Of a stretch of DNA of 64,000 bases, positions 5,094 through 51,975 are shown one piece after another. The position numbers and the translations under genes were made by a program. Source of the stretch: Cymodocea nodosa (taxonomy: Eukaryota; Streptophyta; Magnoliopsida; Alismatales; Cymodoceaceae); the NCBI GenBank assembly GCA_036874045.1, contig CM072335.1, positions 15,954,001 through 16,018,000 of the forward strand, in the 5' to 3' direction. The notes beneath the pieces were generated by a model. It was not told the origin of the DNA, ran no database searches, and saw nothing but the letters and a program-made list of their open reading frames with translations. Position 1 is the stretch's first letter. Each line of letters starts with the position of its first letter.

Positions 5094-5140
5094 ACCCTAA
5101 ACACTTATGCTCGAAGATTTCTGAAACCTGTAGTTAGCAT

Positions 5141-8100
5141 ATGTGAATTCTGCAATTTGGAAGGTCACGACATCTCTGATTGTTTAAAACTAAGACGATT
5201 GTAGATGGTTAGATCACATGAACAACAAATGAATTATCTTCAATATAATAGATCTGAGTAGATATAATAGATCTGAGTATGAGAAGCCTATAGTTTACCC
5301 AATTGATGGTCAGTTTAGAATGTATAATATGTTGAGAGACAAGGAAGTTTGGGATAGGTATGATAGACTGGAGCGTAGCTTAGAGCAAAACATGGACAAA
5401 CTGGAACAATACATGTGGCAGCAACAAGAAGTCAATTAATTAAACTATAGAGAAGAATATTCAAAACCTAAAATTGATATCATTTACAAAACTGAAAAAA
5501 TCATAATGAAAATTGATCAAAAATTGAATGCAACGAGATTAGATGATCTGGAAAGAAAATTAAAAGTATTGGACGAATATACAATGAAATTACAAGTTAT
5601 GCAACAGAAAACACAAATGAAAACTTTAATGTTACAGATTTGCATAATTTACAAGACATACAAACAAAAGAAAATACCAATGCAATAGAATTTAAAGAAT
5701 GCAAGTTAAAACTAAAAATAGTTGAAGATCATAATCATGAAAATGAAATACAAGAACATCATGAAAGTAATGAAAATCTGGAAGATATGTGTATAACATT
5801 AAGATCTTGAACTAATATACCACCAAGAACTCAAAAAGAAAATAATATGAAGGTGGATAAGAACAAAAATCAAAATGATAATGAAAATGTAATATTTGAA
5901 AACATAGAAATCAATGAAGAAAAATCTGAATCAAAAAATAAGACTAAAAATGTTTAAACAAATGAAATGAAAGAAAAAGAATCTTTTAAATCACAATCAT
6001 TAGCACCCTATCTTGAAAGATTACAATAAACATTTCCTAAAAAATAAGAAAAAATTAGAGAAATTTTTGAAAAAGTACAAGTTAACATTCCTTTGTTAAA
6101 CTTATTACAGAAAATGCCACCTTGTGTTAAATTTCTTAAGGATTGGTGTACTAAGAAAAGACAGCGAAAAGTTTTAAGGAAAGTCTTTTTAGCTGAGCAA
6201 AGTAGTTCCCTATTTCTACTACAAATTCATAAAAAGTTATCTGATCTTGGAATTCCTATTATATCATGCACTATAGGAAATACCATTCTAGAAATAACCT
6301 TAATAGACCTAGGTGCAGGTATAAATGTTATGCCAAGTGATATATTTGCATCCTTAGGATTAGAATGCTTAATCCCTACTAAGACTGTTATTCAATTAGC
6401 TGATAGAAGTATAAGATACCCTAGAGGAAAAATAGAGGATGACTTAATTAAAATCAAAAACTTCATATATCCTATTGATATTGTAATTTTGGATTCTCAA
6501 CAAATTAAGCATAAAAATCATGATACATGTTTAATCTTGGGAAGACCATTCTTAGCAACATCAGGGGTTATTATAAATTATAAAACTGAAGTAATGAAGT
6601 TAACATATGGTAATGAGGATACTCAATTAAACATTTTCAAACCAAAAAAGTTTGAGGAGTTAGAAATGTCCTTACATACTATAGACTTTTTAGAGGATGA
6701 AGGAGATATGCTAGATGATGTGATTCAAGAAGAACTAAATAGGCAACTAAATTCTGAAAATTTAAAAGAAAGTGAAAGCATAAATATAGAAGGAGATCAG
6801 GAAGAAATTAATATAGAAAATGATGATGTTAAATTAGGTGCTCTAGCTTCTGATGGTCAACATTTAGATTTAAAACATTTACCTCCTAAATTAACCTATA
6901 TATTTCTGGAAGAAAAACGAACATGTCCAATCGTTATTGCTTCAGATTTAAAAGAGGATCAAATTGCTAAATTAAAAGATGTAGTAAAAACTTATAAAGA
7001 GGCAATAGGATGGACTATGACTGATATAAAGTAATTAAGTGCAACTTTATGCTGTCACCACATATATTTAGAAAAGAATGGTAAACTAGTTAGAATTCTT
7101 GAGAGGAAATTAAATCCAAACCTTAAAGAAGTAGTCACGAAGGAAATAGTGAAATGGTTAGATAATGACATAATTTATCCATTTTCTAATAGCTCATGGG
7201 TTAGTCCAATCCATGTAGTTCCCAAGAAATCAAGATTAACAGTTATTAGGAATGAAAGTCAGGACTTGATACCTACTAGAATTCAATCAGGCTGGAGAGT
7301 GTGTATAGACTATAGAAAGTTGAATGCTGTGACTAAGAAAGATCATTTTCCCTTCCTTTTATAGATCAAATGCTAGAAAAATTAGTAGGGCAAGAATATT
7401 TTTATTTCCTAGATGGGTATTCAGGATATAACCAAGTGCTAGTAGCATTAGAGGATCAAGAGAAAGCAACTTTCACCTGTCCTAATGGAACTTATGCTTT
7501 TAAGAGAATGCCATTCGGATTATGCAATGCACCAGCTACCTTTCAAAGGTTTATGCAGGGCATATTCACTAAAATGACTGAAGATTTTTTTAGAAATATT
7601 TATGGATCATTTTACTGTTTATGGAACTTCATATGAAGTGTGTTTAAACAATTTAGACCAAATGTTAAAACGCTGCGTGGAAAAAAGTCTTATTCTAAAT
7701 TGGGAAAAATGTCACTTCATGATTAAACAATGAATAGTCTTGGGACATGTTGTTTCAAAGAAAGGGTTGGAAGTAGATAAAGCTAAAATAGAAGTAATTT
7801 CTAATCTACTAGAACCTAAATCAGTAAAAGATATTAGATCATTTCTAGGACATGTTGGATTTTATAGAAGATTTATTAGAGACTTTAGCAAAATAGCTAG
7901 ACCTTTAACTAATATATTAAAAGATGTCACATTTAACTTTGATAAAAATTGCAAAGAAGCATTTTTCAATCTTAAAACTAGCTTAATTTCAACTCCTATA
8001 ATACAAGCACCTGATTGGACCCATCCATTTGAATTAATGTGCGATGCATCTGATTTTGCTATAGGAGCAGTGTTAACACAGAAGATAGAAAAATCTCGTA

Positions 8101-9764
8101 GAGTGATTCATTATGTAAGCAAAATCTTAAATAATGCTCAAGTTAATTATACTACTACTGAAAAAGAGCTGTTAGCTGTTGTGTTTGCCTTAGAAAAGTT
8201 TAAATCATATCTGATTGGAGCTAAAGTGATAGTATACACGGATCATTTAGCTTTAAAATACCTAATAGCAAAGAAAGAGACTAAACCTAGATTGATCCGA
8301 TGGATATTATTATTACAAGAATTTAATCTAGAAGTTAAAGATAAAAAATGTTGTGAGAATGTAGTAGCTGATCATTTATCAAGATTACAAATAGAAAAAT
8401 CAAATATTGAAATTAAGGATAATTTTCCTGATGAACAATTAATGACCATCAACACAATGCCTTGGTATGCAAACATAGTTAATGAGTTAGTTACTAGTTT
8501 AACACCTAAGGATTGGAATAGATAAGATAAGAAATTGTTCTTTTCAAGAGTAAAATATTACTATTGGGAAGACCCATACTTATTTAAGAAATGTCCTAAT
8601 CTGGTTTTAAGGAGTTGTGTTCTAGAAATTGAATATCAAAGCATATTGTCATTCTGCCATGACCAAGCATGTGGAGGGCATTTTGGTTCAAGGAAAACTA
8701 CTGTCAAAATTCTGTAATGTGGATTTTATTGGCCAACAATATTCAAAGATGCTCATAAATATTACTTAAGTTGTTTAAAATGTCAACAAATAGGAAGAAT
8801 ATCAAAGAGCAATATGATGCCTCTTAATTCTATTGTTGAGGTTGAAATCTTTGATGTGTGGGGAATAGATTTTATGGGTCCATTTCCTATGTTTAATCAA
8901 TTTAATTATATATTGTTGGGGGTGGATCATGTATCTAAATGGATAGAAGTTATTCCTACAAAAACTAATGACAACAAAGTGGTAATACATTTTATAAGAA
9001 CTAATATAATTGCCAAATTTGGAAAACCTAAAGCTACTATCAGTGATAGAGGAACTCATTTCTGTAATAGAAGTTTTGAAGCCTTAATGAAGAAATATGG
9101 AGTAAATCACAAATTTGCAACATCATATCATCCGCAAACAAGTGGACAAATAGAAAGTGCAAACAAACAAATTAAGTTAATCTTAGAAAAAGTAATAAAT
9201 CCTATTAGAGCAGATTGGACTAATAGATTGATAGATGCACTTTGGGCTTATAGAACTGCTTATAAGACAAGCTTAGGTTTGTCACCTTTTAGGCTAATAT
9301 ATAGAAAAAGTTGTCATTTACTAGCTGAAATTGAACATAAAGCTTATTGGGCATTAAAAACTCTAAACACTAATTTAAATCAAGCTGCTGAAAATAGGAA
9401 AATGCAATTGATTGAATTAAAAGAATTTAGGAATGAAGCTTATTCGAAAACTATAAGAGAAAAAGAGAAAATGAAGTTTTGGCAAGACAAGAAAATTATT
9501 CCAAAAACCTTTGAAATAGGACAAGAAGTATATCTTTACATGACTAGACTCCATAACCCTCTAGGAAAATTAAGATCTAGATAGGCAGGACCTTACATAA
9601 TTTGAAATATTTATTCCTATGGAGCTATTGAAATTGAAAATCCTAAAAATCAGAATATATTTAAAGTAAGTGGACAAAGACTTAAACCTATTTTGAAAAT
9701 ACCTAAAAGTTATTTTGGAATTATAGAAGAAGTAAGAGTAGAGGACTACTCGAGCTTTACTTAG
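5141..9764 (+). pseudogene. Athila family-1 pol: zinc knuckle, protease, RT, RNase H, integrase (element A)
   Basis: Decayed polyprotein. The order is: a CCHC knuckle (C-x2-C-x4-H-x4-C) at about 5144-5185, followed by L-TAG-ATG; a charged, coiled region to about 6000; an Athila-type aspartic protease with DLGAGINVMP near 6307 and LGRPFLATSG near 6540; RT from about 7080; RNase H about 8040-8400 (CDASD, TEKE, YTDH); integrase with H-H-C-C near 8660-8795, D at DFMGPFP, D at ISDRG and E in the TSGQIES segment. At 7599-7610 the RT catalytic motif reads FMDH where the related copies have FMDD, and a T-run just before it shifts the frame. There are many stops, for example TGG to TAG near 9580. It cannot make an active polymerase. 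No gag precedes it. Confidence 0.9.
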
Positions 9765-10493
9765 TAAGAAATTCTCTAAGTATGTTAAAAAAAAAAAATC
9801 CTTATCTAAACATAGTCACGGTTCAACTGAAAGAAATTATCGGTTTTACCAAAACATATATTAAACGAAAAAAAACGTTGCAGTTCAACCAATAGGATCC
9901 GTCGGTCTGACCGAAACATAAAAATATTAAAAACATAAAAAATCTATATATTATATTAAGTAAAAATGTCAATTTTACCGAAGCATAGTATTGATTCAAC
10001 CGATAAGAAAGAAAGAGAGTAATTAATTTTGATTCAACCGAGGAATATAATGGTTTGACCGAAAATTCTAAAATGTTAAAAAAATTAAGAGTCAGTTAGA
10101 CTAGAAATTCTTCGATCTTGACCAAAGTAAAAATTATTATTTTAAGTATTTTTATTAAATATATCTTACGGGGAGTCCGTTGAGTTACACTTAACTCAAC
10201 GAACTTACTCCGTTGAGTCTAGGATAAGTTAGCGAATTTACGTCGTTGAGTTAATTATAACTCAACGAAGTATTGTAGTTAAGTCCACGAACTTAGTCCG
10301 TAGAGTTAACCGTAACTTCACGGAGAGGTAAGTGAGAGAGAGAGAGTTTGCGCGGGAAAATAACCCAATTACCTACTTAAACTTAGGGCTTATTTATATT
10401 AAAACTTAGGATTTGGGGGCATTATCCGCAAACTCATTTAGAACTTAGAACAATAAAGATCAGAGCAATTCTGTTTCGTTTTGTAACTCCACG
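9765..10493 (+). repeat. Post-integrase spacer with two palindrome families (element A)
   Basis: No gene. Two kinds of short repeat fill it. From about 9820 to 10130, words such as GGTTCAACCGA, TCGGTCTGACCGAA and GGTTTGACCGAA recur. From 10173 to 10325, TCCGTTGAGTTA and TAACTCAACGAA alternate head-to-head and could fold into short hairpins. The matching gap in element C (54228-54782) has both families in the same order. A GA microsatellite is at 10331-10345. Confidence 0.75.
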
Positions 10494-20049: not shown

Positions 20050-20572
20050 GTCCTAATACAATTCATTTGCTTGGTAGGTGTGCAAGCCAACAAGTTTACC
20101 ATTCAAATAGATTCGAGTAGCACTCACAACTTCATCTAGGTAAGCATGACCAAAAATCTTAATTTATTTATTAAGAAGAGGATAGGACTTTAAGTAATGC
20201 GACGAAATTTGTCCGGTAGTTAAATTACAAGTGGAAGGCACTTCAATTGTCATTGATTTATATATGGTTGTGTTGGGGAGTGATATAATAGTGAGAGTTC
20301 ATTGGTTAAACCATATGGAGATGTAACCCTTAATTGTTAGAAGATGACTTGTTCCTTTAATATGAATGGACAAGTTATTCAATGGAAGGGTCAACCCATT
20401 AAAGAGATGCAGGTAGCCAACTCAGAGCCAATTGAACTTCCAATAATTAGAGCCACTTGATCACAATATCCAATTAAAGGATCCCAAGAAGGCAATTCAA
20501 ATCAAATCGTACAAATATTACCGAGAGAAGGAAATTGAAGGACAAATTGAAAGATGGAATGTGGAGGTTATG
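20050..20572 (+). pseudogene. Chromovirus-type gypsy pol remnant: protease to RT start (left half)
   Basis: Frameshifted Ty3/gypsy coding sequence. Near 20098-20145 it reads FTIQIDSSSTHNF, the protease motif (usually LIDSGSTHNF) with Gly changed to Ser. At about 20203-20300, CPVVKLQVEGTSIVIDLY and VVLGSDIIV match the end of protease. At about 20350-20560, MNGQVIQWKGQP and YKYYREKEIEGQIERW match the linker into RT. The DSG-type protease separates it from the Athila DLGA type. It continues at 31509 beyond the inserted Athila element. Confidence 0.7.
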
Positions 20573-22109
20573 TGTTCAAACTTTAATTTTGCCCATTTTT
20601 AATGAATTTTATAAGTAATTTTGCATGATATTATATATCTATGATGGATAAATGATATTAATTATGGGTAATATAAGTCTTGAAATATAATGCAATATAG
20701 AAATTTAATTAACAAGTGCATCCCCCATTGAATATAATTTTACATGGAACACATTGATTTATTTTGCATGTCCTATGTTGGCTAACGTCTCTTGGAGTTC
20801 AACTTCCATTAATTGTAGGTAACATATATATGGGAGGAGCTTAATGCAAAAGACCAAAAAAGATGTAAAGAATCAAAAGTTGGTGGACTAAACTTTAAAG
20901 AAGAGGACATGCCAACACCTTATTGGCCCTCCTAGATCTATGGCATCTTATTGGCTTGGTGATAAAACCAAGGTGCCACATCAAAGAGAGAGAAGACAAA
21001 ACAACATAAATACAAGGGGAGAGGAATTTCGACCAACAACTTGGTGTTTCCAAGGAGAGAAAGAAGGAGGAGAAGAAGCTTGGAGGTGAGGCTTGTGCTT
21101 CCAAAGAGAGGTCATCCATTCATGCTATTCACCATTCCAAGGGCTAAGGAGAAAACGTCCAAGCTTGGAGGTGGATTTGCTGTCAAGTTCCATTGAATTC
21201 AAAGCTCTAGAGAAGAAGATAAGAAGCTCCTAAGGTAGTGACAACTCTTAGAGTTTATTATTTTCTTGTGTAGAAAGAAGAATTGATGAGAAATGGTGGT
21301 GAACATCTCAATTATATGTCTTCTTAGCTAGATAGAGTTTAATGAATGTATATGAATGTTTAATTCTTCTTTTCAACTTCTAATTTGCATTCTCTATTCA
21401 CGTGTATTGTTGGGGCTGTTGGTGAGGCTTTCACACGAGTGAATGACACTCACCAATGGTAGCTTGGCGCATTTGAGAAGAAGGTGTGAATTGAAAGAAG
21501 AAGAAAATAAGTGTTGATGTTCATTTTAAAGAAGAACCTATCACTTATATCTAGTTGTTAATTTTAATTTCAGTAGTTAATTGAGTTTGTTATATCTTAT
21601 ATTGATCACATTTTGTCCTAATCAATCTCCAAAAAGAATTTCTAATGCAAGTAGTATAGTATAGTTTAGCTAGATTAGCAAATAGCATAGTTGCATGCAT
21701 TTAGTATAAATTAGAATAGAGTAGTATAGTCTATTGAACCTTCTTGTTTTATTTTTCTTTCCTTAATATTGATGCATGGATATCACTTCTGAAATCACGT
21801 GGAACTTGTGTGCATGTTATAATTGAATGAGTTGATAGATTTACAAGTAAAGAAATTGATTCACATCACCATTTTCCACTACACATTGCCTTGAAATTGC
21901 ATGATTTGTGAGCTTGTGTTAACTTTGATTATTCTACATTCACATGTCATTAATTTACTGAAGTATACCTAAGAGCTTGAAGAACAAGTTGAGTAATAGT
22001 TGATTAAGTCATAAACACAATCCTTGTGGAAGAATGACCTGTATTTGCCATGTACACCAAAAGAACTGTGCACTTGCAGCAAAGCTTGAGCTAAAAATAT
22101 AGCTCAACA
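20573..22109 (+). mobile_element. 5' LTR of element B
   Basis: 1537 bp, TGTTCAAACT... to ...GCTCAACA. Nearly identical to 29957-31508. An R/U5 boundary cannot be fixed by eye. Confidence 0.95.
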
Positions 22110-22115
22110 AGTTTT

Positions 22116-22133
22116 TGGCGCCGTTGCCAAGGA
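22116..22133 (+). other. Primer-binding site of element B (tRNA-Asp type)
   Basis: TGGCGCCGTTGCCAAGGA, six bases after the LTR end. This is the typical Athila primer site. Confidence 0.85.
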
Positions 22134-22257
22134 TTGGCAATTTGGCTTAGTTTATTTTTACCATATTTGAAGTTCTTAGTTGGTTGTTTGACAAATTTTG
22201 ATAACATAACTTTCTTGTGCTTAGTTGTGAATTTTATTGCTTAAATTTCTTGCAAGT

Positions 22258-25200
22258 ATGTCAAATTTTCATCATGATGATCCTTTTAAGTTTATAAATG
22301 ATTTTTTATCAGAAAGTGCTTGTTCTTATTGCCATGTAAAAGGTCATGATGAAAGCATATGTACCAGCAAGTTATTTAATATAAAAATTCAACCAGTAGA
22401 AGAAACAACTCATGTTAGTGATGAATATGATGTCTTGCATGATGCTAGTGAATTTTCTTACGATTTTGATATGCATAAATCTCATATTGATGAAAGAAAT
22501 GATGTTTGTGATTGCTCTCATGTTAGTAGTAGTTCTATAGAAGAGTCCATGAGGAATATAGAGAGAATCATAGAGTTAGGAGATAGCTATTATATTGCCA
22601 CTAAGCTCCTACAACAAAAAGAAGATGTAATTGTCATAGATGATGAAGAAGACTCTAATGTAGATAAAAACGTGAATTTAATCTTAAGATCTGGAAAAAC
22701 CATAGAAAGAAACATATTAGAACATGAAAGTGAAGAAAAACAAAGTGAAGAAAACGTAGATGAAAAGGAAGAAAATATGTTGACAAGAGATGAACATAAG
22801 GATGTAGAACTAGAACATGAAGGAGTTGAACTTGAAAAATGTCTAATGGATGAAACTAATGAAGAATTAATTGAAGAAAACCCTGTTATAGACTTAGAAA
22901 TGGATAAAAAGAAAGAAGAAACATCTGAAAATATGAACAACAAACCACCATTTCCTAGTCGGCTTGACAACAATAAAGAAAATGAGGAAAATGAAGCTAT
23001 AAGAACCATATTTGAGAAAATCAATGTTAATATGCCTATGTTAGAATTAATTAGAAAAATTCCAGCATATGGGAGGGTGCTTAAAAACCTTTGTACCAAG
23101 CATAGGAAGCCAAGAAAAAAATTAAGTAAGCAAGTTTATTTAACCGAGTTAAGTAGTTCAATGTTGCTTGATAGTTTAGCTAAAAAATTCAATGATCCTG
23201 GTGTTCCTCTAATAACTTGCTTAATAGGGAATGTTTTAATTGAAAAAGCATTATTAGATCTTGGTGCAGGAGTTAACGTGATGCCAAAACACTTATATGA
23301 ATAATTGGGAATCACAGGAATTAAGAAAACTAGAACACTAATTAAACTAGCTGATAGATCATATAAGAGTCCCATGGGTATTGTAGAAGATGTCTTAATT
23401 CAAATTGAAGATTTTATATACCCAACCGACTTTATCATTTTAGAAACCAATGCACCAACTTGTGAACCAAATGAATCTACATTGATCCTAGGGAGACCAT
23501 TCTTAGCAACTATTAATGCCCACATTAATTGCAGAAATGGTAAAATGTCAATCTCCTTTAACAATAAGGTGATATCATTGAACATTTTTAAAAGAGATAG
23601 GACTATAAACCATCAAGTAGATGACAACATTAGTGTAAGCATTTCTGAATTATTTGAAGAAGTTGAAAATAGTAGTAATGAGGAAGAACTTAGTGCTGAA
23701 ATTTGCTTTCTAAACGTTGAAGATAATCTAGAACACAAGGTATCGTTACAAGAGAATAGTGGTGAGCATGAAATGAATAATGACTTGATTTTAGAAGTTA
23801 AGGAAAGGAATAAATTAAAAGCACTCCCACAAAATCTGAAATATGCATTTATAGATAAGCAAAATGAATATCCTGTTATAATTGGAGCAAACTTAATCCC
23901 AAACCAAGAAGAAAAATTAATGAAGATATTAAGTAAAAACAAGAGAGCTCTTGGTTGGCAATTGAGTGATATTGTAGGAGTTAGTCCCACTATAGTTCAA
24001 CATAGAATTATCTTAGAAGATGAGAACTATGCCTTTAGAGAACCTCAACGTAGATTAAATCCTCAAATGAGTGAGGTGGTAAAGAAGGAGATAGTTAAAT
24101 AGCTTGACAATGGCATTATATACCCTATTAGTGATAGTAGGTGGGTAAGCCCTGTGCATGTAGTACCTAAGAAATCGGGCTTTACAGTAGTTGAAAATCA
24201 AGATCATGAGTTAGTGCCTACTAGAATAAAAACTAGTTGGAGGGTATGTATTGATTATCGTAAATTGAATTCTGCAACTCGTAAAGATCATTTCCCATTG
24301 CCATTTGTTGATCAGATGCTAGAAAGGTTAGCTGGACATGAATTTTATTGTTTTCTTGATGGATACTCTGGGTACAATCAAATACCCATAATCTCTGAGG
24401 ATCAAGAAAAGACTACTTTTACTTGTCCAAGCGGAACCTATGCTTTTAGGCGTATGCCTTTCGGTTTATGTAATGTGCCTGCAACATTTCAAAGATGCAT
24501 GGCAGGAATTTTTTATGATATGAATGAAAAATTTTTAGAAATTTTCATGGATGACTTTTCTGTTTTTGGCAAAAATTTTGATATTTGTTTACATCATTTA
24601 GATATGGTTTTGCAAAGATGTGTTGAAAAGAATTTTATTTTAAATTGGGAAAAGTGTCATTTCATGGTGAATGAAGGCATAGTTCTTGGGCATGTGATAT
24701 CTAATAGAGGGATTGAGGTGGATAAGGCAAAAATTGACGTTATATCTCATTTGCAGCCACCTAAATCTGTTAAGGAGGTTAGAAGCTTTCTAGGACATGC
24801 TGGTTTCTATCGTAGATTTATTCATGATTTTAGCAAGATAGCAAGACCTATAACTAATTTACTTGCAAAAGATTTTGAGTTTGTTTTTTATGAACATTGT
24901 CTTGCTGCCTTTAATCAACTTAAGCATGCATTAATATCTCCTCCTATAATTCATGCCCCAATATGGGATTATCCTTTTGAAATTATGTGTGATGCCTCCA
25001 ATTATGCAGTAGGTGCAGTACTTGGGCAAATAATTGATAAGAAACATCATGTCATATGCTATGCTAGTAAAACTTTGAATGAAACTCAAGTAAATTATAC
25101 TACCACAGAAAAAGAATTTCTTGCTGTTGTTTTTGCTCTAGATAAATTTAGACCATATTTAGTTTGCAATCAAGTTATTGTGCATACTGATCATGCAGCT

Positions 25201-26706
25201 ATTAAACATTTGATGAGTAAAAAAGATGCAAAACCAAGATTAATTCGTTGGGTTTTATTGCTGCAAGAATTCAACATAGAAATTAAAGATAAGGTTGGAA
25301 AAGAAAATTTAGTTGCTGATCACCTCTCTAGATTAGAAAATATTCCAGCATGCAATAATGTGATTAATGAAAAGTTTCCTGATGAGAGTTTATTTCTAGT
25401 TGGTAAGTTACCTTGGTTTGCAGACATTGCTAACTATCTTGCTATAGGGTTAATACCAACTGATTTATCTAAACCAGATAAGAAAAGATTGAGGTACATG
25501 GCTAAACATTATGTTTGGATGGAACCTTATTTGTATAAAATGGGTTCTGATCAAATTTTAAGAAGATGTCTTCCTGAAGATGAAATTGCTAATGTCTTAA
25601 ATTTTTGTCATAATCATGCTTGTGGAGGTCATCTTAGCCATAGAAAAACTTCTTTGAAAATTCTTGAATGTGGATTTTATTGGCATTCTCTAATTAAAGA
25701 CTCTAAAGATCATTGTAGACATTGTGATAGATGCCAAAGAATGGGAAAAATTTCCAAACGAAATATGATGCCTTTGAATCCTATCATTGAAGTTGAAATT
25801 TTTGATGTTTGGGGCATTGATTTCATGGGACCATTTCCCATTTCTTTTGGTTATTCTTATATTTTGTTGGCTGTTGATTATGTTTCTAAATGGATTGAAG
25901 TTATCCCAACTAAGAGAAATGATGCTAAAGTTGTTGTTGATTTTCTTAGATCTAACATTTTTGCTAGATTTGGTATTCCAAGAGCTATAATTAGTGATAA
26001 TGGACCTCACTTTTGCAACAGAGTATTTCAAATGGCTTTGAGGAAGTATGGGGTTACTCACAAGTTAGCAACACCATATCATCCTCAAACAAGTGGGCAA
26101 GTTGAGGTATCCAATAGACAAATCAAGCACATGCTCGAAAAAGTAATCAAACCAAGTAAGAAGGATTGGGCAGAAAAGCTTAATGATGCACTTTGGGGTT
26201 ATAAGACTGCCCATAAAACTGTGTTAGGAATGTCACCATTTAGAGTAGTTTATGGGAAAGCATGTCATTTACCTATAGAAATAGAACATAAAGCAGAATG
26301 GGCTATTAGAACATTTAACATGTGTGTTGATGATGCAGGAAAAGCAAGAAAATATCAACTCAATGAGCTGGAAGAAATAAGAAGAGAGGCTTATGAAAAT
26401 GCAAAGATTGCAAAAGAACGAGCAAAAGCATTCCATGACAAGAAAATTTTGAGAAATGACTTTCATGAGGGACAAGAAGTTTTATTATATAACTCTAGAT
26501 TACATTTGTTCCCTGGAAAATTTAAGACTAGATGGACAGGACCATTCATCATTAAACATATATATAATCATGGAGCTATAGCTATAGAAAATTGTAAGAC
26601 AGGATTTAAAACTGTAGTGAATGGTCAAAGACTTAAAGAATATTATCTTGGAAAAACCTACAATCATGGAGAGAGTGCTTTGTTGTTGGAACCCAATTAT
26701 AATTAG
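22258..26706 (+). pseudogene. Athila family-2 pol (zinc knuckle, protease, RT, RNase H, integrase), two in-frame stops
   Basis: One continuous frame of about 1480 codons from ATG 22258 (MSNFHHDD), only 124 bp after the primer site. A CCHC knuckle (C-x2-C-x4-H-x4-C) lies at 22321-22362, then an acidic linker, protease (DLGAG at 23257-23271; LILGRPFLAT near 23490), RT (FMDD at 24544-24555), RNase H (CDASN, TEKE, HTDH), integrase (H-H-C-C about 25608-25735; [12 protein letters not shown] and TSGQVEVSN carrying the D, D and E) and a C-terminal GPFIIKHIY module. Two stops break it: TAA 23302-23304 (by comparison a former Gln) and TAG 24100-24102 (a former Trp, as in VKWLDN of the relatives). Otherwise all catalytic residues are present. 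It may have been active recently. There is no Gag domain in it beyond the knuckle. Confidence 0.93.
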
Positions 26707-27081
26707 TGTTTGTATGTATTTAGTTGTAGATGTAGTTTTTCTTTTCTTAATTCTTAGTAATTTTTCATTCTATGTATTAGTGTGTTAGTAGTTAACAATA
26801 AAATTTATTATTGCAAGTTCACGTCAAAATTTTATATGCTTATTATCATGCATCTATCCTTGTTGTTTCATGTCATCTTGAATTTATATGATGAACCATT
26901 CATGCTGAAATTTTATGATATATGATGGTACTTGTATACTTTGATGATATTTCACCATGTAAATAACTCTTGCATATACTCTTGAATTACATAAATGATG
27001 TGAATGTCTTAGTGCATGAAAAGTTGGGAGAGAGGCGCAGATAACAGGTTGATACGCATAGAGAATCAAAAAGAAACACAC

Positions 27082-28377
27082 ATGGCAGCAAACAATAATG
27101 AGAGGAGGGTGGTGCTCAAGGACATGTTCTATCCTACACAGAGAAGTAGGATCACTTGCATTCAACTACCAGATGAGAATGGAGCACATTTTGAGTTGAA
27201 ATCCCACTACATCAGCCAATTACCAAAGTTCATGGGACACGATGATGAGGATGCTTATGGCTTCCTTGAAGAATTTGAAGATGTATGCAACTTAATGAAG
27301 ATACAAAATCTGACAGATGATTCCATCCTATTGAGATTTGTTCCCTTTGCCTTGAGAGACCAAGCAAGAAGGTGGCTTCAAAGTTTACCACCCAACTCTA
27401 TTACTTCATGGGAGCAATTTAGTGCCATCTTTTTGAAAAGATTCTATCCAATTGCCAAAACAAATGAGATGAGAAAGGTTATTAATTCTTGCTATCAAAT
27501 GCTAGAAGAATCATTTGCTAATTTCTTTAGCAGGTTCAATGAATTGCTTGTGAGGTGTCCACATCATGGGATACCCTTGTGGAGACAATGCCAAATCGTG
27601 TATGATGGAATCCCTACATCAGTAAAGGGCTTGCTGGAATCCATGGTGCAAGGAGACTTTGCAAATCTTGAAGACACAGTGGCATGGAACTTCTTGGGAG
27701 AGTTGGCGGCAAAGACATTAAGTTGGGAGAAATCCTCTCCAAGATCTGAAACAAGGCAAGAGAAGGGCATTCATTCCATAAATGCAACCACGGCCCTTGA
27801 AATGAAATATGGAAGCCTATTGAAAAGGGTTGAAGCAATAGAAGGAAAAGGGAAAGAACCACTCAAGTGCTTGGGATGCAATATGGTAGGCCATATTGTG
27901 AATGAATGTCCTATGTTGGCTAACCCTTCTACTGATGTTCAGGAAATATACACAATGAACAATCAAAGGCAAGAAGTTTATGACAACTCCTACAACCCAT
28001 CTTGGAGGAACCACCCAAACTTTTCATGGAGAAACTCACATTTTCAAGATAATCAACATGGTGAATCCTCAAATTTTCAAGGCAATCAACCTACACGAAA
28101 TACTATGGAATTGGCTAAGAAAAATGATCATTCAGCAGCAATAGAAGACATGGGAAAGAAGATAGACAGCTTGATCAAAGGCATGGAAGCATTTGCCATG
28201 AACAACGCTAAGTATCAACCAATTGTGCATGCTAATGCACAATCAATCAGCAAGATAGAGGCACAACTATCCCAAATATCAGCAAGGCTTTGCGAGAGGG
28301 AGAAAGAAACCATTCCAAGCCAAGCTATCACAAATCCACGTGTCAACCAAGTGGAGACAACTTCAGGAGAAAAGTAA
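27082..28377 (+). CDS. Athila family-2 Gag, downstream of pol (intact frame)
   Basis: 431 residues from ATG 27082 (MAANNNERR); the frame is open from an earlier ATG at 27016, which would add 22 residues. It is a Retrotrans_gag-type capsid protein: FELKSHYISQLPKF, LRFVPFALRDQARRWLQSLP and FLKRFYP are the conserved Athila Gag blocks. A CCHC knuckle, CLGCNMVGHIVNEC, follows near 27867-27908, then SYNPSWRNHPNFSW and a Gln/Asn-rich end with a coiled stretch. It packages element RNA. Placed 375 bp after the pol stop, it would need its own mRNA or internal initiation. Position after pol is unusual; see findings. No frameshift or stop is seen. Confidence 0.92.
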   Translation: MAANNNERRVVLKDMFYPTQRSRITCIQLPDENGAHFELKSHYISQLPKFMGHDDEDAYGFLEEFEDVCNLMKIQNLTDDSILLRFVPFALRDQARRWLQSLPPNSITSWEQFSAIFLKRFYPIAKTNEMRKVINSCYQMLEESFANFFSRFNELLVRCPHHGIPLWRQCQIVYDGIPTSVKGLLESMVQGDFANLEDTVAWNFLGELAAKTLSWEKSSPRSETRQEKGIHSINATTALEMKYGSLLKRVEAIEGKGKEPLKCLGCNMVGHIVNECPMLANPSTDVQEIYTMNNQRQEVYDNSYNPSWRNHPNFSWRNSHFQDNQHGESSNFQGNQPTRNTMELAKKNDHSAAIEDMGKKIDSLIKGMEAFAMNNAKYQPIVHANAQSISKIEAQLSQISARLCEREKETIPSQAITNPRVNQVETTSGEK

Positions 28378-29956
28378 AGAGAAGAATCACTTGCAATCAA
28401 CAAGATAGCTAGATGCAACCTTTTATCTCCACAACTTATGCTCAGCTTATTTGATAAGAGACTTATTTTATTTCATGCTTGAGATGTTTAATTTTAAAGA
28501 ACAGAATTTGATGATATATTTAAAAGTAGTTAGATGCATGATTTTCAAATACTTGAAGGGTGTAGAATGGGTTGAAAGACTTTATCATGATATCATGTGT
28601 TTGTTTGACAAATTGATGTTCAACCATAATTAAAGTTAAATACATTTTATCTATACCACTTGAAGAGCAGTGCACAACAGGTATGAGCTAACATTTTTTT
28701 TTTTACTTATTCTTATTGTTGAAACAATCCTTTCTACATTGAGGACAATGCAGGAACTAAGTGCGGGGGGGAGGAGAAAGTAAAAAAATGTTTTAGGATG
28801 CATACTACAGCAATGAAATTGAAAATTTTCCAAATGTAAGTTTCTTTCACAAGCAGGTTGGTGGTAAGTTTGAAAATTCATTCTATATGTTGCATGCCAC
28901 CATGTTTTATGTGTATCCATGATAAGAACTTGCATGTCAATTTTATTTTTTTTAGGAAATAGCTTTGTTAGTTTAATTTTGATTTTGAATTATTGCATCT
29001 TAGCCTTACTAGCATGCTACTCAATCTCCATTGTATGCTCTTAAGGTTAAGATCATTAATTCTTTATTAGTTTTAGCTTTGTTTTCATTTGAACTTAATT
29101 TCTTTTTGTGGCATGTTGAATTTTCCTCAGTAATGTTCTTTCCTTATGATGTCGTACACTTAGAGCTGAGCTTATCTTTAAGGTGAGGATAGGAATATGC
29201 ATTTGAGATGCCAACCATAGTTTCTTACTTATAACATATACACATTCTTGCACTAGACTCTTAATCATGTGGTATCTAGAGGACTCTTCTTATGACATGA
29301 ATCTTGAGGAGTGGCTTAGGAAATCTTTCCAATAGGTTGTCCCATGAGAAGGGTAGATATATGAATTTGGGAATAAGGTTTGATACCCGTTCTCATAAGG
29401 TTGCTGGGGACGGAGGCTAAGTAACCTCTTAGTCTTCACATGTAAACCCTTTATGGGAGGTATCCTAAGGGTAGTGGTAGGATGTGAGAAAAGAGAGGTT
29501 TCCAAAAAAAAAAAAAAAAAAAAAAAGAAGAAGAAGAAGAAGTTGTTCTATATAATGAATAAAGAAAATACTTTTGTAGAATAAAAAAAAAAAAACTCAA
29601 TTGAAAATAAAGGGGCAATGTACTAGAGGATAGAAGCCTAAAGAAACCTTCATGTATTCTTGGATTAAGTGAGATGAACCTAGATGCTATTGATTATGGG
29701 TCTAAGCACTTTGCACTTAATAGTATCTTTAAAAACTTATTTTCCTTAGGTTGGCATTAGATGTCTATTCTATATTCCTCACCATTACAAGAACTCACCT
29801 TGTGAGTGGAGATTATCTATAAGTATTGTTGCATTACTTAGTGAGAATTTAATTTGCCTTAATTTTCTTTATTGTGTTTGTTTGTTTAAAAGGGGTTCCT
29901 TAATCTTTTCTTCTTAAATTTTGCCAGAGGACTAGCAAAGTTTAAGTGTGGGAGGG
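28378..29956 (+). other. 3' region of element B with internal and terminal purine tracts
   Basis: No gene. At 28736-28780 the motif TTGAGGACAATGC is followed by a G/A run, matching 1943-1982 in family 1. At 29504-29541 there is an A-run passing into GAA repeats. The terminal polypurine tract, GTGTGGGAGGG (29946-29956), abuts the 3' LTR and is preceded by GGACTAGCAAAG, as at 3084-3112. Confidence 0.75.
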
Positions 29957-31508
29957 TGTTCAAGCTTTAATTTTGCCCATTTTTAATGAATTTTATAAGT
30001 AATTTTGCATGATATTATATATCTATGATGGATAAATGATATTAATTATGGGTAATATAAGTCTTGAAATATAGTGCAATATAGAAATTTAATTAACAAG
30101 TGCATCCCCCATTGGATATAATTTTACATGGAACACATTGATTTATTTTGCATGTCCTATGTTGGCTAACGTCTCTTGGAGTTCAACTTCCATTAATTGT
30201 AGGTAACATATATATGGGAGGAGCTTAATGCAAAAGACCAAAGAAGATGTAAAGAATCAAAAGTTGGTGGACTAAACTTTAAAGAAGAGGACATGCCAAC
30301 ACCTTATTGGCCCTCCTAGATCTATGGCATCTTATTGGCTTGGTGATAAAACCAAGGTGCCACATCAAAGAGAGAGAAGACAAAACAACATAAATACAAG
30401 GGGAGAGGAATTTCGACCAACAACTTGGTGTTTCCAAGGAGAGAAAGAAGGAGGAGAAGAAGCTTGGAGGTGAGGCTTGTGCTTCCAAAGAGAGGCCATC
30501 CATTCATGCTATTCACCATTCCAAGGGCTAAGGAGAAGACGTCCAAGCTTGGAGGTGGATTTGCTGCCAAGTTCCATTGAATTCAAAGCTCTAGAGAAGA
30601 AGATAAGAAGCTCCTAAGGTAGTGACAACTCTTAGAGTTTATTATTTTCTTGTGTAGAAGGAAGAATTGATGAGAAATGGTGGTGAACATCTCAATTATA
30701 TGTCTTCTTAGCTAGATATAGTTTAATGAATGTATATGAATGTTTAATTCTTCTTTTCAACTTCTAATTTGCATCCTCTATTCACATGTATTGTTGGGGC
30801 TGTTGGTGAGACTTTCATACAAGTGAATGACACTCACCAATGGTGGCTTGGCGCATTTGAGAAGAAGGTGTGAATTGAAAGAAGAAGAAAATAAGTGTTG
30901 ATGTTCATTTTAATGAAGAACCTATCACTTTTATCTAGTTGTTAATTTTAATTTCAGTAGTTAATTGAGTTTGTTATATCTTATATTGATCACATTTTGT
31001 CTTAATCAATCTCCAAAAAGAATTTCTAATGCAAGTAGTATAGTATAGTTTAGCTAGATTAGCAAATAGCATAGTTGCATGCATTTAGTATAAATTAGAA
31101 TAGAGTAGTATAGTCTATTGAACCTTCTTGTTTTATTTTTCTTTCCTTAATATTGATGCATGGATATCACTTCTGAAATCACGTGGAACTTGTGTGCATG
31201 TTATAATTGAATGAGTTGATAGATTTACAAGTAAAGAAATTGATTCACATCACCATTTTCCACTACACATTGCCTCACTACACATTGCCTTAAAATTGCA
31301 TGATTTGTGAGCTTGTGTTAACTTTGATTATTCTACATTCACATGTCATTAATTTACTGAAGTATACCTAAGAGCTTGAAGAACAAGTTGAGTAATAGTT
31401 GATTAAGTCATAAACACAATCCTTATGGAAGAATGACCTGTATTTGCCATGTACACCAAAAGAACTATGCACTTGCAGCAAAGCTTGAGCTAAAAATATA
31501 GCTCAACA
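29957..31508 (+). mobile_element. 3' LTR of element B
   Basis: 1552 bp, TGTTCAAGCT... to ...GCTCAACA. Longer than the 5' LTR by exactly one 15-bp tandem copy of CACTACACATTGCCT near 31261-31290. Confidence 0.95.
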
Positions 31509-31790
31509 TTATGCATAAATTATAAAGAGTTAAATAAGAATGTGGAGGTTATGCATAAATTATAGAGTTAAATAAGAATACTATTAAAGACAACTACCCA
31601 ATGCCCATTATCGAAGAACTACCTGAATCAAGGAAAGTAAAGTGCTATTCTAAAATTGATTTAAAAGTCAGATATCAGTAGGTTAGAATGAAGAAGATAT
31701 TCATAAAATAACCTTTAAAATTCACGATGAACATTATGAATTTGTAGTTATACCCTTCAAATTATACAAGGGTATTTAAAACACTTGGAA
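31509..31790 (+). pseudogene. Chromovirus-type gypsy RT remnant (right half)
   Basis: Continues the pol broken at 20572. From 31577 it reads TIKDNYPMPIIEEL and, after a frameshift, YSKIDLK and EDIHK...HYEFVV, matching the RT palm of chromoviruses (NVTIKDKYPIP..., FSKIDL, EFLVMPFG). It carries stops, including a former Gln. A 36-bp tandem duplication of the insertion-site sequence lies at about 31509-31575. Confidence 0.7.
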
Positions 31791-35500: not shown

Positions 35501-38500
35501 ACAACATATACATATTTTTTTAATGATGATTGATGAGTTATAATATGTAATGAAAAGTGGTATACTTGATTTCTTGTGGATATGATGAATTACATTATAA
35601 ATGATGACTTGTTGAATTGAGGATGCTCTAATCATTATTTTTAAATCAAAGTTGTCAAGGCAAAAGGCAACATCTAGACCCCCCCTAACTAAAATGCTCA
35701 AGGTGAGATACAAGGTAACCACCTGACTCATGTAGGGCAACAATAAATGAAATTTAAATAAAAATTAAATAACAATAAGCATCTAATCATATAGCACATT
35801 GGTAAATAACTAAAATATGAATAAAACAAAGAAATATACAAAACCAAAGGATAATAAGCAAGTTAAATGTCATGCATTCATGTTTCAATCAATATGAAGT
35901 CACTAATACAATAACATTAATTTTAAGCAATCAAACATAAGTTTACAAAAGCTAAAGATACTAATACATAAACAGGAGCCTATTTAAATAGATAGATAAT
36001 AGAGTTGCGAACATAGGCTAGAGATATAAGGAAGAAGGTGTTAGGATCGATAGGCTCACTAAAGGGGGGTGAATGATGAAGGTGTATAAGTTTTAATTCT
36101 TTTAACTTAGAATCGATTGATTCTACAAAACAGTGAGATGAAATGAATTAAATGTAAACAAAACAATAAGAAAATAACATACAGTAAATTTTAGGTGGTT
36201 CACCAACTTGGCTAGTCCACTCCTAAGATACACTTGAACTTCACTAAATAGACAAGTACTTACAACACTTGCTTTCAGGTTGAAGCAATAACCAACACTT
36301 AGAGCTTTCAGGTATAAGCTCAATAACCAATCTTTCTTTCGAACTTTCAAGTTGAAGCTCTCAACCAACAATGAGTTTTCAATTTGAAACTCACGAACCA
36401 ATAGTTTTGAATTTTTCTATCAGAGTTTTGACATAGGGAGCTTTTCTGCAGTGAATCTTTAAGAGTATACTTGACTGTTGCAAACTTTAAAGTGTATTTG
36501 GAATTTTGTGTAGCTCACAGTAATGTATAATCATTATCTCTATCTGATCTTCTCTTAAAGATCTCATATTTATACCAAAATGTATTACGATCATATTTTT
36601 CTTTCAATGGATGTATTCTGCTATACTTACTAAATAATCAGACCTAAATATGGTAAGTTACCGTTCTGTCTAATATTCAGTAAGTAACCCTCCAATTTCC
36701 TTTGATTTTCAGATGGTTACATGAATAACTCACCAAAAAGTGTCTATAACTTACCGAAACTTCACTTACATCCTGTTGTCTGTGTCACGTGAGGATTTTA
36801 AGTTGTTCACGTGAAGTGTCAAGTATTCGGAGACTTGTAGTTTTAACTTACCAAAAAACTCTGAACTTCCGGATAGTTAAATACAGTAACTCTCCGATTT
36901 TTTTTTTAAACTTCCGACTACTGTCTTTTTAATTCTGCACGTGCGTAATAAAATAACTTAAGTTCTAAATGGTTATACCTGTAACTCACCGAAATCCTTC
37001 AAATTTTGGATAGTTAACTTTCTAACTCTCCAAAAAGTCATTTAAGCTTCTGTTCTGGATTTCTACACGTGGTTAATTGAATGACTTAAATTTCGGATAG
37101 TTAGCCTTTCTAACTTTCCGATCATTCAACCAACTGTCTTTCACAACTCTCCGAAGGCTTTATGATTTCGGATAGTTATTCTTCTAACTGTCCGACAGTG
37201 TTACTGCTGCTTTAAACTTGCTCTTCGGATACATAAGTCTGTAACTCACCGAAGATTAATTTTCTTCCGGATGCATAAGTCTGTAACTGTCCGATTTTCT
37301 GTAGCTCTATAGCAGCACATTCTGAAATTAACAACATTTTGTTTGTCTATCTTCTGATCTTTTACTACACTAACTTATCTATGAAATACAATATGTTTCC
37401 TCACACAGGTTTTTGCATTATCAAAATACTCAGGTCTTAACAATCTCCTCCTTTTTGATAATTGACAAAATCTTTTACATTTATTTACATGTATTTCACT
37501 CCCTAGATTATTTCTATACATTCAGTTACATAGAAACTAAGTAAAATAAGGATTTATAATGAATATACTAAAGTGGTGAGATTCCTCCTCCTGACTATGT
37601 ATTGTCTTCTCCCCCTATCTGTGTGCTAAGATTTCCTTCCTCCTTTTTAATACTTCTCCTTCTGTCTGTATTGGAAATACTGTAAGTTTCCATATTCTTC
37701 TCCAATTTCCATATTCTTCTTCCCCTTTTTGTCATTATATAAAAAGGTGACTGATATCTGTAAGACTGTAAAACTAATATCTAATATGTTCTACACGAGT
37801 ACATGTTAGTAGAAAGCAAGCTCCCATATGGTGAGCTTGAGGAATAATAGATAAAGGCATTTAAAGATCTTGTAATGAACATATGCCTAGATTTCTTCTA
37901 ATATGATTAAAAGTTGATTCATTTAAGGGTTTTGTTAAAATATCTGCAAGTTGATTTTCTGTTGGAACAAACTTGAGTGAGATGTTCCCTTTTTCCACAT
38001 GATCTCTCAAAAAATAATATCTGATCTCGATATGCTTGGCTCTAGAATGAAGTACTGTATTTTTAGATAAACTGATTGCACTATTGTTATCACAAAATAT
38101 GACTGTATTCTGAATTTTCAGTCTGTAGTTTGCTAAAGTTTGCTGCATCTAAAGAATTTGAGCACAACACAGACCTGCTGTAATATATTTGGTTTCAGTA
38201 GTAGATAATGCAATACAATTTTGTTTCCTACTGAAACAGAAAATTAATGAATTTTCAAGTAGTTGGCATGTGCCACTAGTGCTTTTTCTGTCAGATCTAC
38301 TGCCTGCATAATCTACATCACTATAGCCTGATGACGTTAGGCTGCTATCAGTTGAGTAGTATAATTTAAAATCTTTAGTACCTTGTAGATATTTGAAAAT
38401 TCTTTTTACTGATTTCAGATGAAATTCCTTTGGTGATGCTTGAAATCTAGCACACAAGCATACACTGAATATGATATCTGGCCTACTTGCTGAAAGATAC

Positions 38501-50632: not shown

Positions 50633-51975
50633 TCATTCAGCTACTCTCCTAGAAGAGGTATCAATTTCATTAACAGTTCTATTGACAAGGTTAGGTACTG
50701 CTTGCATTGCAATCCTCTAGTAGGTCTAACTTCCATTGATTCCTTCTATCTAAGTGGTATATTTCTATTCTGATTTTGAATTGCAGCATTTCCAAATACA
50801 AAATCTAGACGATTGTTTAATTATTGGATTATCTTTTCTAATTTCTCTATTCTAGATCATTGTTCTGGTAATGCTTCATAACTTATATTCTTCTCATTTA
50901 CATTTTCTCCTCCCTGGAAATTGTTGTTTCTCCAAGATAAATTCGGGTGATTTCTCTAATTAGGATTATAAGAATTTCCAAAGTTATCTTTCTGGTTTCT
51001 AGCATAAATAATATCTAAATCATTAATGTTTGCATTCTTTTCTGCTAGTTTTTGATTTAATGATAACTCTTCTATTTTCTTTGTTAATTCAATTAATTTC
51101 ACTTCAAGCATAGTACTTGACTCTATTTCACTCATTCCTCTTGGCAATATTCTTTTATCTATAATAGCTTCAGCCAAGTTTTCCCACTGTGCAATTCTTT
51201 TTGCAAAGTTTTCTAAATATGCCCATGCTTCTTCACTACATAGTTTCAAAAATCCATTTTGACAAGTAGATTCTAATAAAGATTTCGTTGAAACATCTAT
51301 GTCTTCATAAATTATACCTATTAATTGTGCTTTACTCATTGCATGATATGGACATTGAGTCAGTAAATCTTTAAATCTTTCAAAATATTTCCAGAATGAT
51401 TCACCCTGTTTTTGGCTACACATTAATATTTCTTTTTTCTTTTTAATCGTTTGATGTGTTGGATAATATTTTTCTAGAAAAACAAAGCAAAATTCAGTCC
51501 ATGCAGAAATTGAATCAGACGATAGAGTATATAACCATCTCTTAGCTATGTCTTTTAAAGCAAAAGGGATATATCTAAGTTTAATAGCATCTATACTCAT
51601 GTTCGACATTTTCATCATTTGACAAACTTCATTAAATTCTCTAAGGAAATAATAGGCATCCTCTCTTTCTAATTCATGAAAATGTGGCAATTGACTAATA
51701 TAATTAGATTTCAGTTCAAACCTATCTCCCTCAAAGTTTGGCAATTGAATACATGAAGGTTCATCAACTAATTCAGGATACAGAATTTCTCCTAATGGTT
51801 TTTCTACTAGAGTAGCCATCTCTACGTTCTCTTTTAAAGAAAGGTTAGCTACACCCCAAAGAATTTCATTAAAGTCCAATTTAGAAAATGTTTCAGTGTG
51901 CCTCTGTGTTGAAAATTCCTAGGTAGGTGTTCTTACTAATCGTTTAGTGCTTAGAGAACGAGTCCATGTGCTCAT
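50633..51975 (-). pseudogene. Athila family-1 Gag, downstream of pol (element C)
   Basis: ATG at 51975 (MSTWTRSL), an in-frame TAG about 19 codons in, then open from 51879 to 50956. It matches the element B Gag in order: ELKSNYISQLPHF, LRYIPFALKDIAKRWLYTLS, FLEKYYP, then SYNPN and NHPNLSWRNNNF after a Trp-to-TAG stop. More stops and probably a frameshift follow before the end at about 50633. Unlike element B Gag there is no zinc knuckle; the only family-1 knuckle is in the pol leader. Same strand as pol, and 2.8 kb after the pol end. Confidence 0.88.

What the first reader, a model, noticed from the sequence alone, without database searches (positions are those of the whole stretch)
22116..29956. 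Element B: pol precedes gag between two intact LTRs
Seen directly: after the primer site there are only 124 bp before a pol frame that begins with a zinc knuckle and goes straight to protease, RT, RNase H and integrase. An intact Gag frame (27082-28377) follows, on the same strand, before the 3' LTR. Both LTRs and the TTATG target duplication are present, so this is one transposed unit, not a chance junction. Ty3/gypsy elements, including the Athila elements I know of, have gag first. With gag last, Gag would need a separate mRNA or internal start, and the normal way of making far more Gag than Pol would be reversed. I cannot tell whether this order has been reported already.
Basis: partly seen in the sequence, partly recalled or inferred. 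Interest (0 to 1): 0.9.

Follow-up and report, generated by a model that had tools for sequence, protein, structure and literature searches.

The report
Retrotransposon clade with gag after pol
In this plant genome several related families of Athila-like jumping genes carry the gene for their shell protein (gag) after the gene for their enzymes (pol), the reverse of the usual order, so the two proteins are likely made separately and the enzymes would need their own way into the particle.

Summary
Element B is real as described: LTR-PBS-PR-RT-RH-IN-gag-LTR with TTATG duplications. It is not a one-off. In the window's own 374.6-Mb genome, 54 of 82 B-type gag matches have a B-type pol start within 9 kb on the same strand, upstream in 54 and downstream in none. 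Four families share the order: B, fam1 and fam2 are seen whole between LTRs, the A/C type of this window in two overlapping parts. None of 46 gag loci examined has a protease downstream in the flank held, and a normal-order gag-PR query does not cross the gag/PR junction in any of 65 scored matches; a probable plant contaminant in two bacterial assemblies shows the normal order with the same probes. RT-IN and gag trees each put the families on one side of a branch, below the starred support level. Gag dN/dS is 0.06-0.13 in four fam2 pairs. At least one copy of each family starts Pol with a CCHC knuckle. Likely reading: Pol alone from genomic RNA, gag from a separate, probably spliced, RNA. Seven open-access paper searches aimed at gene order listed no such element. 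The expression mechanism is untested.

The parts
20568..20572 (.). 5' target site duplication TTATG
   Evidence: read directly; matches 31509-31513
20573..22109 (+). 5' LTR (TGTTC...CAACA)
   Evidence: 98.5% identical to the 3' LTR outside gaps
22116..22128 (+). primer binding site TGGCGCCGTTGCC
   Evidence: 0 mismatches; 0.02 matches expected by chance for the 17-mer at up to 3 mismatches
22253..22261 (+). candidate 5' splice site CAA|GTATGT overlapping the pol ATG (predicted only)
   Evidence: the one GT site with at least 7 of 9 matches to a recalled consensus in 21500-22400; no RNA evidence
22258..26706 (+). pol frame: leader, CCHC, protease, RT, RNase H, integrase; two in-frame stops in this copy (23302, 24100)
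   Evidence: the protease part has no Pfam hit in B and is named by alignment to other protease regions
22321..22362 (+). zinc knuckle CSYCHVKGHDESIC near the Pol N terminus
   Evidence: motif CX2CX4HX4C
24154..26706 (+). RT, RNase H and integrase part
   Evidence: RVT_1 3.3e-29, RT_RNaseH 1.1e-35, rve 1.9e-19, Integrase_H2C2 4.8e-9
26707..27015 (+). spacer between pol and gag; candidate 3' splice site ending at 27012 (read by eye, predicted only)
   Evidence: same spacer in 30 of 30 B-type loci
27016..28377 (+). gag: capsid domain and its own CCHC (27868-27909), 453 aa, open frame
28738..28750 (+). motif ATTGAGGACAATG downstream of gag, also after gag in fam1 and fam2
   Evidence: in the window alone not beyond chance at up to 2 mismatches
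29944..29956 (+). polypurine tract next to the 3' LTR
   Evidence: read directly
29957..31508 (+). 3' LTR
31509..31513 (.). 3' target site duplication TTATG
50956..51879 (-). gag of the A/C-type element, downstream of its integrase and ORF2 (second family with the order)
   Evidence: assigned to the A/C element by colinearity with L043
54775..59412 (-). pol of element C, starting shortly after its PBS-like site, no gag upstream
5104..9772 (+). pol of element A (same family as C), CCHC near its start, no gag upstream

Best explanation
Element B belongs to a group of at least four related retrotransposon families in this plant genome in which gag lies after pol between one pair of LTRs; Pol is predicted to be translated on its own from the full-length RNA, Gag is likely made from a separate, probably spliced, RNA, and the zinc knuckle at the start of Pol would help package Pol without a Gag-Pol fusion. 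SHOWN: the order, its spread over families, no normal-order relative among the matches scored, the CCHC near the Pol start, and low dN/dS of gag in its new place. INFERRED: a single relocation in the ancestor of these families. A gag-pol frame like that of P0001 was split just before its LRSGK motif; a whole gag, with its own N terminus, came to lie behind integrase, and the 5' gag was lost except perhaps for a nucleocapsid-like knuckle now fused to protease. PREDICTED: Pol starts at the first ATG after the PBS; in B a donor overlapping that ATG, joined to an acceptor just before gag, would remove the Pol start and leave the gag ATG first. UNTESTED: packaging of Pol through its CCHC and the genomic RNA, as in foamy viruses.
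For: Order: 54 of 54 paired gag matches (of 82) have ORF1 upstream; 41 of 46 gag loci have integrase upstream on the same strand and none of 46 has a protease downstream, while both control contigs do. Families: fam1 (L041/L042) and fam2 (L045/L046) complete between LTRs; A/C type from the window and L043. Transposed as units: different 5-bp TSDs at three B-type copies (TTATG, TAAGC, ATTAT) and at fam1 (CTACA). No normal order: 65 of 65 scored P0001 matches stop by residue 475 of 680. Shared ancestry: RT-IN 94/96 and 90, gag 88. Selection: gag dN/dS 0.06-0.13 in four fam2 pairs; integrase 0.12-0.18 in five fam2 pairs. Pol alone: 13 of 117 ORF1 matches lie in an open frame of 1,489-1,491 aa, the length of the gag-less pol frame. 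CCHC near the Pol start in B, A, fam1 and fam2. Split point: one normal protein, P0001, aligns B gag at 38-467 and B ORF1 at 477-625.
Against: No RNA or protein data, so splicing, start choice and packaging are unproven. B's acceptor at 27012 was not listed by my scan; the one listed (26758) would leave several ATGs before gag. In fam1 the nearest donor-like site (7 of 9) is 33 nt before the Pol ATG and in fam2 it lies inside ORF1; neither overlaps the ATG, and both families have about 1.0-1.2 kb between PBS and ORF1. Tree supports (94/96, 90, 88) are below the starred level. Gag and pol of fam2 do not always share one history: L005 gag is 75-79% identical to three other fam2 gags while its pol is 90-92%, and gag dS exceeds integrase dS for the same pairs, so gag may be exchanged between elements. 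Closer pairs give gag dN/dS 0.34-0.54, and B-type copies show no third-position excess. The fam2 copy showed no TSD. C-type gag and the fam2 gags scanned have no CCHC. Only top-scoring candidates are scored in this genome, so rare normal-order copies are not excluded.
Confidence: 0.6

Rival explanations
1. Same order, but Gag is made without splicing: by an internal promoter in the 3' part of pol or the spacer, or by internal ribosome entry on the full-length RNA.
For: A noncoding spacer of about 0.3 kb lies before gag in B, fam1 and fam2; splice-site candidates in B are not strong.
Against: TTTTTCTTAGCAG|GA in fam1-type loci and TATTTCAG|GG in fam2-type loci (read by eye) look like acceptors. 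No promoter search with a plant model was made, so this rival was not tested.
Confidence: 0.27
2. gag behind pol arose several times by separate template switches rather than once.
For: Supports are not at the starred level; A/C has an extra ORF2 between integrase and gag, B, fam1 and fam2 do not; fam1 and fam2 have longer leaders; L005 suggests that gag can be exchanged.
Against: Both gene trees group the families, and fam1 and fam2 are sisters in both; a CCHC start of Pol is shared.
Confidence: 0.13
3. The downstream gag is a relic; Gag comes in trans from normal-order elements in the same genome.
For: Many copies are broken: 22 of 30 B-type gag copies have stops. A gag-less B-type copy exists (L047).
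Against: gag dN/dS 0.06-0.13 at dS 0.76-2.47 in four fam2 pairs; no normal-order Athila-like gag among 65 scored matches or 46 loci.
Confidence: 0.05
4. Chance junction, nested insertion or assembly error at 22116-29956.
For: None found.
Against: LTR pairs with TSDs and the same junctions in many copies on many contigs.
Confidence: 0.01

Closest known systems
Athila lineage of plant Ty3/gypsy elements (Diaspora, Calypso, Athila4)
   Same: RT-RH-IN and gag of the same kind, PBS a few bases after the LTR, LDLGA-type protease motif, long LTRs; Diaspora features from passages of PMC1142308
   Different: Diaspora has one gag-pol frame with gag first; here pol is first, gag is a separate frame after integrase, and Pol starts with its own CCHC
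Foamy viruses (Spumaretrovirinae)
   Same: Pol made apart from Gag, with packaging through genomic RNA (start of the abstract of PMC3196705 in the listing); proposed here by analogy
   Different: foamy viruses keep gag before pol (recalled); here the order itself is changed and Pol, not Gag, would be on the full-length RNA
Gmr1-like Ty3/gypsy elements
   Same: a known change of gene order in a Ty3/gypsy group
   Different: there integrase lies before RT (passage of PMC3587641); here pol is internally normal and gag is displaced
Juno1 and Juno2 elements of bdelloid rotifers
   Same: an extra zinc knuckle inside pol (passage of PMC5408684)
   Different: gag is ORF1 and pol ORF2 there; the knuckle is upstream of RT, not at the Pol start

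Membership tests
Ty3/gypsy (Metaviridae) | RT-RH-IN order within pol | tested here: met
Ty3/gypsy (Metaviridae) | domain order GAG-PROT-RT-RH-INT (criterion in PMC6317226, passage) | tested here: not met
   gag after integrase in B, fam1, fam2 and A/C
Athila lineage | RT-IN phylogeny within Athila | tested here: inconclusive
   groups with plant proteins of this type, but no reference row carried the name Athila; the label rests on homology and recall
Athila lineage | tRNA-Asp PBS just after the LTR | tested here: inconclusive
   TGGCGCCGTTGCC 6 bases after the LTR; that this matches tRNA-Asp is recalled, and no tRNA was compared here
Athila lineage | one gag-pol frame, gag first (as in Diaspora) | tested here: not met
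Foamy-virus-like separate Pol expression | Pol not fused to Gag | tested here: met
   by sequence only: 13 of 117 matches in open pol frames of about 1,490 aa without gag
Foamy-virus-like separate Pol expression | separate RNAs and RNA-bridged Pol packaging | not testable with these tools
   no RNA or protein data

The most novel reading that the evidence does not exclude
A clade of LTR retrotransposons has given up the rule that gag precedes and is fused to pol: gag sits in the env position on its own RNA, Pol is the first and only product of the genomic RNA, and a nucleocapsid knuckle moved onto Pol brings it into the particle. This would be a second, independent escape from Gag-Pol fusion beside foamy viruses.
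Probability: 0.5. Interest if true: 0.92.

Novelty: new variant of a known kind. Interest (0 to 1): 0.83.

Why it matters
Gag-first order and a Gag-Pol fusion are treated as near-universal in LTR retroelements because they set the Gag:Pol ratio and carry Pol into the particle. A multi-copy lineage with the order swapped and gag still constrained would show that both jobs can be done otherwise, and makes the question testable by cDNA and protein assays. It also shows a blind spot: a reference survey of plant elements removed every element with domains in unexpected order as a likely misprediction (PMC6317226, passage), so such lineages could be missing from standard libraries.

Tried and rejected
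Chance, nested insertion and assembly error: rejected. Gag supplied by normal-order kin: no such kin among the matches scored. Viral contigs for more contexts: nothing usable in two scans. Prokaryote contigs: four hits; L048 and L049 served as normal-order controls but are 99.7% identical over 9.0 kb, so they count as one observation; L050 shows no gag in its 1.7 kb after integrase, and L051 matched at 34% only and was not used. Pol protein search gave no genomic context; 20 of the 120 listed proteins were read, six of them with a gag C-terminal part fused to LRSGK-type sequence and protease. P0121 (source jgi, 418 aa) looks like a gag-less Pol start, but its contig is short and it has no CCHC; a lead only. 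Signs of spliced gag copies: L027 and L031 have pol deletions that start just after the LTR or inside ORF1, not at the candidate donor, so they do not support the splice prediction. Literature: nine searches were made; seven aimed at gene order, one at splicing and foamy viruses (62), one at Gmr1 (74). They returned listings; no title or shown abstract reports a pol-then-gag element, and most listed papers were not opened. Opened: PMC1142308, PMC6317226, PMC7264820, PMC3587641, PMC5408684 and PMC8775202 (passages) and PMC12440569 (abstract and outline). The host species was not identified. Rows dropped: the tree used every second reference row that passed a coverage filter, another the first 12 and every second of the rest, a hand-picked 23 plus L048 and L050; the pairing used 82 of the 94 gag rows (11 rows at 36-42% identity and one 33-residue piece left out), one search used 48. 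The eight loci were picked by hand from the list.

Full report
OBSERVATION. The finding holds. Element B has a 5' LTR (20573-22109), a PBS, a pol frame from 22258, gag at 27016-28377 and a 3' LTR (29957-31508) inside a TTATG duplication. Pfam finds RT, RNase H and integrase in 24154-26706 and Retrotrans_gag in 27016-28377; it gives no hit for the protease part of B, which is named by alignment. LTRs are 98.5% identical, K2P 0.0151; with recalled plant rates of 7e-9 to 1.3e-8 that is about 0.6-1.1 million years. The pol frame of this copy has two in-frame stops; its gag is open.

A SHARED ORDER, NOT AN ACCIDENT. The window lies in a 374.6-Mb genome of 28 contigs. A B-gag search gave 94 matches, 82 of them at 68-100% identity beside one 33-residue piece and 11 at 36-42%. 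All 30 fetched B-type loci, B included, have integrase and the same spacer directly upstream and the same 3' region downstream; in three (L027, L031, L036) only the last part of integrase remains. A B-ORF1 search gave 117 matches. Pairing the lists, 54 of 82 gag matches have a same-strand ORF1 within 9 kb; ORF1 is upstream in 54 and downstream in none, 42 of them at 4.60-4.95 kb; some matches are pieces of one split gene, and 28 of the 82 have no listed ORF1 nearby. Of the 40 scored LTRs (575 candidates), 12 lie near one of 48 listed gags: six before it, five of these at 4.82-4.91 kb and one at 6.4 kb, and six after it at 1.56-1.64 kb. Two further copies with both LTRs have their own 5-bp duplications, TAAGC and ATTAT.

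OTHER FAMILIES. The eight best Pfam gag hits in the genome (150 scored of 4,640 candidates) are not B-type: their gag is 34-40% identical to B's, yet all eight have integrase upstream on the same strand. Two of these families were read whole. fam1 (L041/L042): LTRs 95% identical, exact PBS, protease, RT-IN, gag, LTR, duplication CTACA. fam2 (L045/L046): LTRs 93-94%, PBS with one mismatch, the same order, no duplication found. The window's A/C type is a fourth family: A and C begin pol shortly after the LTR, have an unassigned ORF2 after integrase, and C has gag downstream at 51879-50956. L043 shows that this gag belongs to the element: it runs colinear with C from just after ORF2 through gag, and then with the left end of the window through the motif region and PPT into an LTR of the same type.

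CONTROLS FOR NORMAL ORDER. P0001 is one reading frame in which B gag aligns at 38-467 and B ORF1 at 477-625, so B holds the same two parts swapped. Searched in this genome, P0001 gave 65 scored matches (12,076 candidates); none passes residue 475 of 680. In 46 gag loci (8 best Pfam hits, 30 B-type, 8 hand-picked further down the Pfam list) no protease lies downstream in the flank held; the single protease match, in L031, is upstream. Integrase is upstream in 41, in L063 only as a 35-residue piece; the other five are A/C type, where the flank ends before pol. The same probes find protease after gag in L048 and L049, probable plant sequence in two bacterial assemblies, 99.7% identical to each other and so one observation. 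Only best-scoring candidates are scored, so rare normal-order copies are not excluded.

HISTORY. In an RT-IN tree of 30 rows the five own rows form one side of a branch, support 94/96; in a 55-row tree support is 90 for six rows; in a gag tree of 62 rows 88 for twelve. None reaches the starred level. In RT-IN their nearest rows are P0131 and P0146, unnamed proteins of unknown context; in gag they are P0001-P0004, of which P0001 is normal-order. So the swap is likely derived and likely single, not proven so. Gag and pol need not travel together for ever: L005 gag is 75-79% identical to three other fam2 gags while its pol is 90-92%.

FUNCTION. In four fam2 pairs gag dN/dS is 0.06-0.13 (dS 0.76-2.47; a fifth pair was saturated), beside 0.12-0.18 for integrase in five fam2 pairs. 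Closer pairs give higher values: gag 0.34-0.54 in three pairs, integrase 0.50-0.74 in two, as expected for decaying copies. B-type copies differ from B with no third-position excess (123, 230, 210 at positions 1-3 over 29 copies), so young copies look neutral. 8 of 30 B-type gag frames are free of stops and 13 of 117 ORF1 matches lie in open frames of 1,489-1,491 aa: intact copies of both parts exist.

MECHANISM. In each family at least one copy starts Pol with a short leader and a CX2CX4HX4C knuckle: B, fam1, A and fam2; C and D carry altered forms of it. B gag and two fam1-type gags also have one; the C gag and the fam2 gags scanned do not. Without a Gag-Pol fusion Pol needs another route into the particle; foamy viruses use the genomic RNA as a bridge (start of the abstract of PMC3196705). 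I propose that the Pol knuckle serves this. For Gag expression a spliced RNA is favoured: in B the single GT site with at least 7 of 9 consensus matches between 21500 and 22400 overlaps the Pol ATG. But B's acceptor at 27012 is weak, and in fam1 and fam2 the nearest such donors lie 33 nt before the Pol ATG and inside ORF1, so this is a prediction with limited support.

NOVELTY. Seven searches of open-access full text aimed at gene order listed no element with pol before gag; most listed papers were not opened, and subscription journals are not covered. Neumann et al. 2019 state that elements with domains in unexpected order were in every case removed as likely mispredictions (passage). A known order change in Ty3/gypsy, Gmr1 (passage), lies within pol.

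Noticed in passing
49901-50446 (-), L043 3707-4798, L056-L063: A/C-type elements carry an F-box protein ORF downstream of gag, 363 aa and open in L043; found in 6 of 8 sampled loci, the other two being fam1- and fam2-type. In L056 it is fused in frame to a truncated gag. It looks like a captured host gene.
   Followed up: partly
10653-11462 (+) and 53613-54071 (-): An ORF2 of unknown kind (A's copy has no Pfam match above cut-off) between integrase and gag in A/C-type elements, 55-59% identical between A and C.
   Followed up: no
L047 (G000:C5:9315600-9322000): A B-type copy between two LTRs that lacks the gag region; window 26848 is joined to 28530 at a short repeat, flanks 97-98% identical.
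   Followed up: partly
L027, L031, L036: Gag-bearing B-type copies whose rearrangement junctions in the integrase part cluster at window 26244, 26339 and 26351; cause unknown.
   Followed up: no
L005 against L001, L003, L004: In fam2 the L005 gag is far more diverged (75-79% identity) than its pol (90-92%), as if gag had been exchanged between subfamilies.
   Followed up: no
3075-5094, 11633-12879: The LTR before element A is preceded by a polypurine tract like B's, so it may also be the 3' LTR of an element further left; A's right LTR lacks its first 0.7 kb.
   Followed up: no
36039-43925 (-): A probable Ty1/copia-like element with 89% identical direct repeats at its ends and broken ORFs, named by eye from the translations.
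   Followed up: no
L048 (NZ_QPKJ02000021.1), L049 (NZ_JABGCL010000066.1), L050 (DAIEQH010000041.1): Contigs of bacterial assemblies that encode plant-type retrotransposon pol, so likely contamination; L048 and L049 are 99.7% identical over 9.0 kb across two genera.
   Followed up: partly
31261-31290 and 31509-31580: A short tandem duplication inside the 3' LTR that the 5' LTR lacks, and a repeated stretch beside the right target duplication.
   Followed up: no
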